From an uncultured Arachnia sp. (GTDB lineage Bacteria > Actinomycetota > Actinomycetes > Propionibacteriales > Propionibacteriaceae), in NCBI GenBank assembly GCA_947493995.1, contig CANLTJ010000004.1:208193-272192 (forward strand): a DNA stretch of 64,000 bases, read 5' to 3'. Of this stretch, positions 52,545 to 62,904 are shown piece by piece. The stretch's first letter is position 1; every line of letters starts with the position of its first letter. A program made the translations under genes and the position numbers. Under the pieces are notes generated by a model, which was given only the letters and a program-made list of their open reading frames with translations, searched no databases and had not been told where the DNA came from.

Positions 52545-54470
52545 ATGACCAAGTCCCTACTAGAGCAGCTGCCCGGCATAGTCGCCGCGGGCAAGCGTCA
52601 AGCGGCACAGATCTTGGAGCAACTGGAGGGGCGCAACCGCGTCAGCCTGCAGACTCGAGAGCTGGTCATTCCCTCGAAAGATCACGGCGGCTTCAACTTC
52701 TGGGGCAACGACGGTGACGGACCTACGGATGAGCCCAACCGGCTGATATACGGGGACAACCTTCTGGCTATGGCAGCACTCCTGGCAGGCAACGAGGACA
52801 ACCCAAGCCTTCGCGGCAAGGTCGACCTCGTCTACATTGACCCGCCGTTTGATTCGAAGGCGGATTACCGCACTAAGATCACGCTGCCAAGCACGACCCT
52901 CAGCCAGAAGCCAACCGTGCTCGAGCAGTTTGCATATTCGGATACATGGTCGGACGGCACTGCCTCATACCTTGCAATGATCACGCCGCGTCTCGTGCTT
53001 ATGAAGGAGCTTCTTTCCGACCAGGGTTCTATCTGGGTCCACTTGGACTGGCATGTGGGTCACTACGTGAAAATTGTCCTCGATGAGATTTTCGGCAAGG
53101 ACAACTTCCGGAATGAGATCTCTTGGCATTACAGCGGTTGGAACAAGCGCCTGCGCGCCTCATTTGAGCGGCGACATGACGTGATTTTCTACTACAGCAA
53201 GACGTCCAATCCCTATTTCGCTTCGTACTTTGAGAAGTGGGCCTCGAAAGAGGATTACGTCAAAAAGCGAAAGCAGAAGGTGCTGACTGACGAGAGCGGA
53301 CGTGAATATGTTCTCTCGGACGCCGGGGGTGGACAACGAATTAAGAGATATCTTGATGAAGTTATGGCTGAGGGGGTGGTAGTCGATGACGTCTGGGATC
53401 TTGACAAGCTGAATAATTCGGCTGGAGAAGCGGTCGGATACGGAACGCAGAAGCCGGTCGCTCTGCTCTCGAGGATAATCCAAGCAAGTTCGCCGCACGG
53501 AGGGTTAGTTGCCGATTTTTTCGCAGGATCTGGTACAACTGCGGCTGTTTGTGAGCAACTCGGACGTCGCTGGGTCGTCACGGATTTAGGTAAACCTGCC
53601 GCTATGATCACTCGCAAGCGCCTCATCGATCAAGATGCGGCGCCCTTCCTGTATCAAGCCATCGGGGACTACCAAATAGAGCAGGCGCGATCGACGTTAG
53701 GACGTTCGTTTCGTGTGGGAGATCTCGCCAGAGTCGTGCTCGATCTTTACGGAGCACTCCCGCTGCCTCCCGAAGAAAACGTCAACAACGGCCTAGGTCG
53801 AATGGCGGGCAGCCGCACGCTCGTGTACGCAGACAGCCCATCGCGTCTTACGACCATCTCGACGCTCAAACGAGCTCAGGGCTACCGAGGATTTAAAATG
53901 GGCGGTTTCGATAAGGTCATTGTGCTCGGCTGGAACTTCTCGGCCGGCATAGGGCAGGACATCAGCGACCTAAACGATCCGAACCTCGAAGTGCTCGTCA
54001 TTCCGCCAGATCTGCTTGACCGGCTCAAAAGGAAGGGCGCCGACAAACTGGCATCCAAGGTGCATTTCTCCACCCTGCAGTATCTCCAAGCTGAGGTGGC
54101 CGCGCGGACGAGGGATGGTGAGCGAGAATCGCTGGAGGTCAACCTGCAGAACTACGTGCTGCTCTCGCCCGAGGCGATCAACTTGGATCAAGCCAACCGA
54201 ACCAAACTCCAGAACGTCATGAATACAGAGCCACTGGTGCTCATCGAGTACTGGGCGGTCGATCCCGACTATGACGGTGAGGTTTTCCGCTCGGTTTGGC
54301 AGGATTACCGCGGCAATACGGACAGTAATGGCGATGAGATGCGCGTCGCCACGACAGCCATGCTCGACCTCCCTCGCATAGACGGACCGCGCACCGTCTG
54401 CGTGCGCGGGGTCGATGTCTTCGGATTCGAGTCAGAGGTTGTCATATCTGGTGTGGAGGTGCAGTCGTGA
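52545..54470 (+). CDS. Type III restriction-modification DNA methyltransferase (Mod)
   Basis: VDLVYIDPPFDSKADYRTK (DPPF motif), FAGSGTTAAVCEQLGRRWVVTDLGKPAA; stop overlaps the res start. Confidence 0.92.
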   Translation: MTKSLLEQLPGIVAAGKRQAAQILEQLEGRNRVSLQTRELVIPSKDHGGFNFWGNDGDGPTDEPNRLIYGDNLLAMAALLAGNEDNPSLRGKVDLVYIDPPFDSKADYRTKITLPSTTLSQKPTVLEQFAYSDTWSDGTASYLAMITPRLVLMKELLSDQGSIWVHLDWHVGHYVKIVLDEIFGKDNFRNEISWHYSGWNKRLRASFERRHDVIFYYSKTSNPYFASYFEKWASKEDYVKKRKQKVLTDESGREYVLSDAGGGQRIKRYLDEVMAEGVVVDDVWDLDKLNNSAGEAVGYGTQKPVALLSRIIQASSPHGGLVADFFAGSGTTAAVCEQLGRRWVVTDLGKPAAMITRKRLIDQDAAPFLYQAIGDYQIEQARSTLGRSFRVGDLARVVLDLYGALPLPPEENVNNGLGRMAGSRTLVYADSPSRLTTISTLKRAQGYRGFKMGGFDKVIVLGWNFSAGIGQDISDLNDPNLEVLVIPPDLLDRLKRKGADKLASKVHFSTLQYLQAEVAARTRDGERESLEVNLQNYVLLSPEAINLDQANRTKLQNVMNTEPLVLIEYWAVDPDYDGEVFRSVWQDYRGNTDSNGDEMRVATTAMLDLPRIDGPRTVCVRGVDVFGFESEVVISGVEVQS

Positions 54471-61182: not shown

Positions 61183-62904
61183 ATGGAGGTGCAGCTCTCC
61201 GAGACCGCCCAAGGCGTTTTGGATCATCACTGCCCAGTCTTGGTACTTGGCGGCCCAGGATCAGGGAAAACGACACTGTCCCTCCTAAAAGCCAGGACAA
61301 TGCTCCCGACTTTGCAGCCGGGCCAAGAGATACTCTTCCTCAGTTTTTCTCGCGCCGCCGTTCGGCAGGTAGAGATCCGCTGCCGTGACATTTTACGTTC
61401 GAAAGCGCGACATCAAATCTCTGTGCGTACGTATCATGCGTTTGCTATGGATCTCTTGCGAGCGCATGGGCGCTTGCTCACAGGACGCGTTCCTCGCATC
61501 GTTTACCCCGGCGACGAGAGCATCGCCAAGGCGTCGTTCGAGGGAGACTGGGATATCGAAGTCAAACGGCTCGGCCGCGATGAAGGCCGCTTCGTGTTTG
61601 GTCAGTTCGCGGCAGCTGCCGCCCAGCTCGTTGCCAGCACTGACTCGATCGCGTCCCTCATCGCCGACAAATACCCGGTGATCATCCTGGACGAGTTCCA
61701 AGACACCGATGACTCACAATGGGCGCTTGTGAAGGCGCTTTCCAAGCGGTCGAAAACCGTATACATGGCGGACCTAGATCAGCGAATCTTTGACTACGAC
61801 GCACGGGTGGACCCGGAGCGCCTCAATCACTTGCGCGCGCACTTGGGTCCCGCTGAGTTCGACCTTAGCGGTGAGAACCATCGAAGTCCGGATGCGGGCA
61901 TCCTCCAGTACGCCAACGCAGTGCTGACCGGCCGGCCCTTGCCGGACACCAAGGACGTTGTTACTCGCTCGTACTGGCCGAACGCCTTCGACAGCACCAT
62001 CCATGCCAGCGTCGTCTGGATGCTCGGTTCGCTCCGGAGAGCAGGCATCCCCCACCCTTCCGTCGCCGTTCTCGCGCGAACGAACTCGCTGGTGGGCAGG
62101 CTGTCAACGGTCTTGGAACAGCAACACAACTACAACGGCCAAACGTTCAGGCCTGTCGAACACGACGTTCTCTGGGATGCAGACCTCACGGCGGCGGCGG
62201 CGTTGGTGGTGGCCTCGATCTTGGAGTGGCCCAGCCATGCTAAAGAAGCTGCACTCAGCCAGACCTTTGACCGCATTGCCGGCTATTTCGATGCGAAGAA
62301 TGCTGCCAGCGCCAGCAAGTCCGCGCGGCAGGCCAGCGAGCGCTACAGGGCGGCTGCCGATCGAGCGCGAAAGGGTGAAAACCAGCGTCTTGCTAGTGCA
62401 AAGACACTCGCCATTGCATACGAGAGCGGCTTGGTGTTGCAGGGCAACCCTGCTGTAGATTGGCTAGAAGCACGCGACCTGCTCGGAATCGGGAAGGACC
62501 TAGCGGATCTTCTTGCTAACGCCAAGTTCGTCCGGCTCTTCCGAGCCACCGATGAGATCGGCAGCCGACTCGCTTCCGCATGGGATCGCCGCGGTAGCTA
62601 CGGGCGAGCAATGGATCTCGTGCGCCGAGCGCTCGAATCCGGCAAGCTCCAGAGCGATCAACGTGATCCGCGCGGCTGTGTACTCATGACCATCCACAAA
62701 TCCAAAGGGAAGGAGTTCGACGGGGTTATTCTCGTCGAAGGACCGTATCAGGGCAGTTTTTTTCGTGACACCGACACCGAGCTACAGCGTGCGGCGGCAC
62801 GCCGTCTGTTGAGGGTTGGCATCACTCGCGCGCGGCACCAAGTGGTAATCGTACGACCACAGGGCGCCCTAGCGCTCGTATCTCCATCAGGTGCGCCTAC
62901 ATAG
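61183..62904 (+). CDS. UvrD/Rep-type superfamily 1 helicase, GajB-like
   Basis: LVLGGPGSGKTTLSLLKA, VIILDEFQDTDDSQW, TIHKSKGKEFDGVILVEGP, RLLRVGITRARHQVVIV. Confidence 0.92.
   Translation: MEVQLSETAQGVLDHHCPVLVLGGPGSGKTTLSLLKARTMLPTLQPGQEILFLSFSRAAVRQVEIRCRDILRSKARHQISVRTYHAFAMDLLRAHGRLLTGRVPRIVYPGDESIAKASFEGDWDIEVKRLGRDEGRFVFGQFAAAAAQLVASTDSIASLIADKYPVIILDEFQDTDDSQWALVKALSKRSKTVYMADLDQRIFDYDARVDPERLNHLRAHLGPAEFDLSGENHRSPDAGILQYANAVLTGRPLPDTKDVVTRSYWPNAFDSTIHASVVWMLGSLRRAGIPHPSVAVLARTNSLVGRLSTVLEQQHNYNGQTFRPVEHDVLWDADLTAAAALVVASILEWPSHAKEAALSQTFDRIAGYFDAKNAASASKSARQASERYRAAADRARKGENQRLASAKTLAIAYESGLVLQGNPAVDWLEARDLLGIGKDLADLLANAKFVRLFRATDEIGSRLASAWDRRGSYGRAMDLVRRALESGKLQSDQRDPRGCVLMTIHKSKGKEFDGVILVEGPYQGSFFRDTDTELQRAAARRLLRVGITRARHQVVIVRPQGALALVSPSGAPT

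What the first reader, a model, noticed from the sequence alone, without database searches (positions are those of the whole stretch)
52545..62904. Candidate undescribed defence system: type III Mod-Res + DUF6414-like + ClpX-like AAA+ + OLD/TOPRIM nuclease + UvrD helicase in one coupled cassette
Six genes run head-to-tail with 4-11 nt overlaps (54467/54470, 57391/57394, 58145/58155, 59314/59317) and a 6-nt gap before uvrD. The last two resemble Gabija GajA/GajB; the first two are a complete type III RM (DPPF methylase; helicase with PD-ExK-like tail). Between them sit an uncharacterised DUF6414-like protein and an AAA+ unfoldase without an obvious protease. Such coupling suggests one composite system in which modification status licenses a Gabija-like effector. 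I know of no named system with this exact set.
Basis: partly seen in the sequence, partly recalled or inferred. Interest (0 to 1): 0.86.

Follow-up and report, generated by a model that had tools for sequence, protein, structure and literature searches.

The report
Stacked RM–Dodola–Gabija defence operon
An actinobacterium carries three already-named antiphage systems (a type III restriction system, Dodola and Gabija) fused into one operon, and related genomes show that Dodola is a fixed middle piece whose restriction system upstream and killer gene downstream are swapped like cartridges, which gives a direct way to test what Dodola does.

Summary
In detail: six intact genes, co-directional and coupled. 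The parts are not new: genes 3-4 are DolA/DolB (Dodola; DUF6414 plus a Clp-like AAA+), genes 5-6 are GajA/GajB (Gabija), genes 1-2 are a divergent type III RM pair. A broken DrmD-like helicase precedes them. Dodola and Gabija both occur alone, and the exact set is not unique: Gulosibacter chungangensis has the same seven-gene order, but with an RM set of a different subfamily.

The less expected result lies outside the given coordinates. In 75 DolA loci, DolAB repeatedly forms the 3' end of RM or BREX operons of every type (methylase-motif genes within 6 kb: 23 upstream on the same strand, 2 anywhere else). In actinobacteria DolB is often followed, with a 4-nt overlap, by an interchangeable gene: GajAB, a PDC-S06 AAA/SMC-like protein, SEFIR/TIR, Ymh or ApeA-like. 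Pairs of loci about 90% identical in DolAB differ entirely on one side, with sharp breakpoints. I read this as a layered operon in which Dodola and a swappable effector back up restriction. That Dodola licenses or guards the RM system is possible, not shown. New variant of a known kind.

The parts
49958..52454 (+). Remnant of a DrmD-like SNF2/Helicase_C gene, split over two frames (49958-51850 and 51813-52454) and cut short at its 3' end; probably not functional
   Evidence: NCBIfam DISARM_DrmD E 3e-92 and PADLOC DrmD E 5e-85 on the first piece, nothing on the second; frame change at a C-run near 51.79 kb and stop right after ...LGPLYPVLDWCR; intact relatives are 966-974 aa
52545..54470 (+). 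mod: type III-like N6-adenine methylase, 641 aa
   Evidence: N6_N4_Mtase E 7.5e-44; PADLOC MTase_III E 3e-74; PDB Mbo45V, EcoP15I Mod; DPPF and FAGSGT motifs
54467..57394 (+). res: divergent type III-like restriction subunit, 975 aa; ResIII helicase and TnsA-like/PD-ExK nuclease tail
   Evidence: ResIII E 1.6e-10, Tn7_TnsA-like_N 856-921 E 2.4e-6; REase_III E 2e-25 partial; NCBIfam BPTD_3080 family E 2.5e-64, below its cut-off
57391..58155 (+). dolA (DUF6414), 254 aa from the GTG or 245 aa from the ATG at 57418; first half of Dodola
   Evidence: DUF6414 E 3e-33; PADLOC DolA E 2.4e-74; homologues 81% and lower
58145..59317 (+). dolB, Clp-like AAA+ ATPase, 390 aa; second half of Dodola
   Evidence: AAA_2 E 2e-13; PADLOC DolB E 1e-136; Walker A/B intact
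59254..59317 (+). dolB tail: the DolAB block shared with Gordonia ends here; the tail DNA resembles that of the other gajAB carriers and holds the Shine-Dalgarno-like AAGGAG of gajA
   Evidence: blastn breakpoints, tail sequences
59314..61176 (+). gajA: OLD-family ABC ATPase plus TOPRIM nuclease, 620 aa
   Evidence: PADLOC GajA PDLC00086 E 4.9e-231 over 1-612; PDB Endonuclease GajA, partial
61183..62904 (+). gajB: UvrD-like helicase, 573 aa
   Evidence: PADLOC GajB PDLC00104 E 7.6e-197 over 3-563; UvrD-helicase E 1.4e-24

Best explanation
This is a layered defence operon made of three known systems that look like one transcription unit: a divergent type III RM pair (mod, res), Dodola (dolA, dolB) and Gabija (gajA, gajB). 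SHOWN from sequence: the identities; the overlaps; that DolAB is a portable core that recurs behind RM/BREX genes of unrelated types; that the gene coupled behind dolB is exchanged between lineages; that exchange happens at near-constant breakpoints (about the dolA start, and about 60 nt before the dolB stop, where the next gene's ribosome site lies). INFERRED: restriction is the first layer; DolA/DolB, an AAA+ remodeller with a DUF6414 partner, is a second layer acting when restriction fails or is being countered; GajAB (nuclease-helicase, known elsewhere to respond to nucleotide depletion and cut DNA) is the last, possibly self-destructive layer. Coupling keeps the layers at matched doses and moves them together. 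A physical or signalling link between Res, DolAB and GajAB is not needed for this reading.
For: Families. Intact motifs and coupling. DolB directly follows DolA in 72 of 75 GTDB loci (two of the other three are cut by contig ends). RM/BREX gene directly upstream (gap up to about 120 nt) in 24 of the 75: type III (L037, L049, L053, L055, L090), I (L058, L059, L080, L081, L086, L099), II (L062, L070, L074, L085, L105), IIG/MmeI (L096, L104, L109), ISP (L083), BREX brxL (L073, L091, L094, L098); some are assigned through clustering with a scanned member. Position control: methylase-motif genes within 6 kb are 23/156 upstream same strand vs 2/248 elsewhere, Fisher p 1.4e-8; by locus 22 vs 1, p 6e-6. 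Swaps: L055 vs L053 are 92-94% identical in DrmD, Res, DolA and DolB but carry GajAB vs PDC-S06; L053 vs L049 are 89-94% in DolA, DolB and PDC-S06 but 36-39% in Res and Mod; L053 vs L058 share DolAB and PDC-S06 behind type III vs type I RM. DolB tree: the window groups with PDC-S06-bearing or effectorless loci while its GajA is 87% identical to loci of another DolB clade.
Against: About two thirds of the DolA loci have no RM/BREX gene directly upstream and about half of the actinobacterial ones no coupled downstream gene; Dodola alone protects when cloned (PMC11514479, PMC12322248), so the layers are separable. The window's exact RM subfamily was not found behind DolAB elsewhere, nor in 296 other genomes of the class at E 1e-60. 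No expression, phage or binding data. DolA has no fold match, so its role is a guess.
Confidence: 0.7

Rival explanations
1. Guard model: DolAB senses failure or inhibition of the restriction enzyme upstream (by contact with the R subunit or with a phage anti-restriction protein) and switches on the coupled effector, as PrrC does inside EcoprrI or PARIS does with Ocr.
For: DolAB sits at the 3' end of RM operons of every type, of BREX and of two CBASS loci; the effector slot is filled by abortive-type proteins: GajAB, AAA_13/SMC-like PDC-S06, SEFIR/TIR, ApeA-like, HNH; the dolB tail travels with the effector. Precedent for RM guardians: PMC12707154.
Against: The R subunits in front of DolAB belong to unrelated families, so a contact model needs a generic signal; DolAB-GajAB without an RM neighbour exists (L052, L054); Dodola alone protects in lactic bacteria (PMC12322248); GajAB can be coupled to brxL without DolAB (L118). 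The tail may travel only because it holds the next gene's ribosome site.
Confidence: 0.25
2. Plain defence-island clustering: three independent systems that happen to lie next to each other, with short overlaps only because actinobacterial genomes are dense.
For: Each system is found alone; RM genes are the commonest defence genes; RM-Dodola colocalisation is reported statistically, without order or orientation (PMC10924106).
Against: Strong orientation and order bias (23 vs 2), repeated side-specific exchange at fixed breakpoints and the same seven-gene order reached with unrelated RM genes are not expected of loose clustering.
Confidence: 0.2
3. A single indivisible six-gene machine, undescribed before, in which modification status licenses a Gabija-like effector.
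For: Coupling of all six genes; seven-gene order repeated in Gulosibacter.
Against: RM, DolAB and GajAB each recombine and occur separately; RM genes of the two seven-gene loci are only about 26% alike.
Confidence: 0.05

Closest known systems
Dodola (DolA DUF6414 + DolB AAA+)
   Same: Both proteins, order and overlap; full-length profile matches
   Different: Described as a free-standing two-gene system; here inside an operon behind RM and in front of an effector
Gabija (GajA OLD/TOPRIM + GajB UvrD-like)
   Same: Both proteins, order, full-length profile matches, Walker and TOPRIM motifs
   Different: A divergent subfamily (solved GajA aligns significantly only around the ATPase end and TOPRIM start) translationally coupled to dolB
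Type III restriction-modification
   Same: Mod with DPPF/FAGSGT, Res with SF2 helicase and PD-ExK-like tail, adjacent and overlapping
   Different: Res is far from the standard profiles; a decayed DrmD-like helicase precedes the pair
PrrC in EcoprrI and PARIS: RM guardian systems
   Same: Abortive-type module genetically tied to an RM operon (PMC12707154)
   Different: Different proteins; no sensing of RM inhibition shown here
Backup effectors of BREX and BREX-related operons (PMC12839542)
   Same: OLD/TOPRIM, HNH and HEPN modules recruited into one operon with a modification system
   Different: That survey concerns BREX and names neither Dodola nor a fixed DolAB core with two exchangeable sides

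Membership tests
Dodola | DolA (DUF6414) present over its full length | tested here: met
   PADLOC DolA E 2.4e-74, profile 3-258/258; Pfam DUF6414 1-282/283
Dodola | DolB Clp-like AAA+ directly downstream | tested here: met
   PADLOC DolB E 1e-136, 3-373/375; overlap 11 nt; Walker A/B intact
Dodola | Antiphage activity | not testable with these tools
   none for this copy; other copies active (PMC12322248)
Gabija | GajA: OLD ABC ATPase plus TOPRIM nuclease | tested here: met
   PADLOC GajA E 4.9e-231, 1-591/600; Walker A GGNNIGKS, TOPRIM LEGQTE
Gabija | GajB UvrD-like helicase directly downstream | tested here: met
   PADLOC GajB E 7.6e-197, 6-nt gap
Gabija | GajA-GajB complex with nucleotide-regulated DNA cleavage | not testable with these tools
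   -
Type III RM | Mod: beta-class N6-adenine methylase with DPPY/F and AdoMet motif | tested here: met
Type III RM | Res: SF2 helicase with C-terminal PD-ExK nuclease | tested here: met
   ResIII and TnsA-like N hits; TGTGKT, DEAH, VVETKAQ; full-profile match weak
Type III RM | One-strand methylation of an asymmetric site; cleavage needs two sites | not testable with these tools
   -
DISARM | DrmA, DrmB, DrmC with DrmD/DrmMI | tested here: not met
   Only a broken DrmD-like helicase; the cassette's neighbours are Mod, Res, DolAB, GajAB
RM guardian (PrrC/PARIS-like) | Activation on RM inhibition | not testable with these tools
   only genomic placement supports it

The most novel reading that the evidence does not exclude
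Dodola is a general adaptor: DolA/DolB reads the state of whatever restriction, BREX or CBASS system lies upstream and licenses an exchangeable downstream killer (Gabija, AAA/SMC-like PDC-S06, SEFIR/TIR, HEPN-like), with the variable dolB tail as the effector-specific part. The window is one build of this plug-in architecture.
Probability: 0.22. Interest if true: 0.85.

Novelty: new variant of a known kind. Interest (0 to 1): 0.58.

Why it matters
Dodola's mechanism is listed as unknown (PMC12322248). Finding it as a constant core between exchangeable RM systems and exchangeable effectors suggests experiments that were not obvious: test it with its RM partner and its coupled effector, not alone. 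It also shows that Gabija, usually treated as self-contained, is recruited as a cartridge behind other systems (behind dolB here, behind brxL in L118), and that operon-level stacking with precise cut points is a route by which layered immunity evolves.

Tried and rejected
DISARM: only a decayed DrmD-like gene, no drmA/B/C. ClpP partner for DolB: the window DolB has no [LIV]G[FL] tripeptide, and only 23 of 68 relatives have any match, so no sign of a protease loop. DolA fold: first model poor (pLDDT 60), second with 92 sequences pLDDT 77; no PDB or viral match, no convincing PDB sequence relative. DolB profile for counting genomes: rings on Clp-type ATPases in every control genome, so useless at loose cut-offs; only G000 and G112 score like true DolB among 199 family genomes. 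Matching contig lengths between GajA and DolA/DolB search hits: the long ones 272192 (window), 270652 and 253238 agree, which points to linkage on those contigs; short contigs can agree by chance, so no counts were drawn from this. A co-occurrence test for the window's own Res subfamily failed for lack of relatives. A replication set from Bacillota could not be drawn because the tool needs a G handle. The control around Gabija without Dodola is small, 8 loci: one has BREX upstream, none has type I-III RM directly upstream by the motif test.

Full report
WHAT IS THERE. The window is the last 64 kb of contig C4 of a 2.94-Mb actinobacterial draft genome. A genome of the same family (G112, whose DolAB percentages equal those of L061, Micropruina sp. 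SSC1) suggests that the host is in GTDB Propionibacteriaceae (inference). The six ORFs reported exist at the stated places with the stated overlaps. Only the dolA start is doubtful: the GTG at 57391 gives the 4-nt overlap, but DNA similarity to another species starts exactly at the ATG at 57418 and the database copy of this protein is 245 aa.

WHAT THE PARTS ARE. PADLOC, Pfam and NCBIfam name every gene: type III methylase; a divergent type III-like restriction subunit; DolA and DolB of Dodola at full length; GajA and GajB of Gabija at full length. So the 'uncharacterised DUF6414-like protein' and the 'AAA+ unfoldase without a protease' are the two halves of a published system, with antiphage activity shown elsewhere and mechanism listed as unknown (PMC11514479, PMC12322248). 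Active-site motifs are intact in all six. Just upstream lies a DrmD-like helicase in two frames, cut short before its usual end; it looks decayed, although the frame change sits at a C-run and could be a sequencing error.

DO THE PARTS BELONG TOGETHER? On plasmids DolAB stands alone (Bacillus, Alkalihalophilus, Listeria), and this kind of Gabija stands alone (Pseudomonas, Rhizobium, Paenibacillus). So neither needs the other. I then took 75 DolA loci from one genome per species. DolB follows DolA in 72; of the other three, two run into contig ends and one has a truncated dolA. GajAB follows directly in Gleimia (L052), Haematomicrobium (L054) and Gulosibacter (L055). Gulosibacter has the window's full order DrmD-Mod-Res-DolA-DolB-GajA-GajB, but DrmD and Mod are only 26% identical to the window's and Res matches over 50 residues only, while GajA is 87% and GajB 83%. 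The same order was therefore built with different RM genes.

A GENERAL PATTERN. Upstream of dolA, same strand and within about 120 nt, 24 of 75 loci have an RM or BREX gene, of every type: III, I, II, IIG/MmeI, ISP and brxL of BREX; two more (L077, L101) have RM genes one step further; two (L043, L057) have a CBASS cyclase-type gene with a Cap15-type gene. As a check free of profile choice I counted genes of at least 220 aa with a [DNS]PP[YFW] methylase motif within 6 kb: 23 of 156 upstream on the same strand, 0 of 40 upstream opposite, 1 of 143 downstream same strand, 1 of 65 downstream opposite (Fisher p 1.4e-8; by locus 22 vs 1, p 6e-6; 16 vs 1 after thinning relatives by hand, p 3e-4). Loose clustering in defence islands would not favour one side. 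The loci are related to varying degrees, so the p values are guides.

Downstream of dolB, 13 of 27 actinobacterial loci plus L064 and the window have a gene starting in the dolB stop (ATGA or GTGA): GajA (3 plus the window), a PDC-S06 AAA_13/SMC-like protein (5), Ymh (2), SEFIR/TIR, ApeA-like, HNH, and one of 351 aa without a match.

EXCHANGE. Three pairs of loci show single-side replacement. L055 and L053 agree at 92-94% in DrmD, Res, DolA and DolB, then carry GajAB and PDC-S06 respectively. L053 and L049 agree at 89-94% in DolA, DolB and PDC-S06, but their Res and Mod are 36-39% alike. L053 and L058 share DolAB and PDC-S06 behind type III and type I RM. Homology starts around codon 10-13 of the longest dolA frame and stops about 60 nt before the dolB stop when effectors differ; across equal effectors it runs on. 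The dolB tail thus moves with the effector; it carries the next gene's Shine-Dalgarno-like sequence (AAGGAG/GAGGAG), which is the simplest reason, an effector-specific docking tail being the bolder one. On the DolB tree the window sits with Gordonia (PDC-S06) and two Actinomyces (no effector), not with the other GajAB carriers; supported branches force at least 2 changes for GajAB and 3 for PDC-S06.

MECHANISM. Most likely the operon stacks layers: restriction, then Dodola, then Gabija. The separability above argues against one indivisible machine. Whether Dodola reads the state of the RM system is open. For: constant position behind RM/BREX and in front of abortive-type effectors; PrrC and PARIS as precedents (PMC12707154). 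Against: RM-less DolAB-GajAB loci, Dodola active alone, and a locus (L118) where gajA overlaps the stop of brxL in a BREX operon without DolAB. A study in Streptococcus thermophilus found additive protection from Dodola plus Gabija when combined artificially (PMC12322248), which fits stacking and does not require crosstalk.

KNOWN OR NEW. RM-Dodola colocalisation was noticed statistically in metagenome-assembled genomes (PMC10924106), and backup OLD/TOPRIM, HNH and HEPN effectors in BREX operons are described (PMC12839542). I found no text describing the fixed DolAB core with exchangeable sides, but only open-licence papers could be searched and the original Dodola paper was not read. I file the window as a new composite of known systems.

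Noticed in passing
window 46447-48088 +: AbiEi-like antitoxin (AbiEi_4 E 3.5e-8) and AbiEii nucleotidyltransferase toxin (E 1.3e-13) overlapping by 8 nt: a complete-looking AbiE pair about 4 kb before the cassette.
   Followed up: partly
window 62928-63998 +: Behind gajB the reading frame changes near 63.65 kb, where a UvrD-helicase N-terminus begins (E 2e-8): a frame-shifted or broken UvrD-type gene running into the contig end.
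   Followed up: partly
window 51780-51800: C-run at the DrmD frame change: sequencing error, decay or slippage cannot be told apart.
   Followed up: no
L118 (G585) 1486-14436: BREX operon pglX-SduA(Shedu-like)-pglZ-brxL with gajA overlapping the brxL stop, then gajB: Gabija coupled to BREX, with a Shedu-like gene inside.
   Followed up: partly
L043 and L057, 8.4-13 kb: CBASS-type cyclase and Cap15-type genes directly upstream of DolAB, with a Ymh or SEFIR/TIR gene overlapping the dolB stop.
   Followed up: partly
L110 (Actinomyces provencensis) 2080-11318: DrmD-Mod-Res intact but dolA matched over only about 69 residues: a decaying version of the same cassette.
   Followed up: no
DolA family (alignment A2): DolA model (pLDDT 77, pTM 0.71) has no significant match among solved or viral structures; possibly a new fold.
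   Followed up: yes
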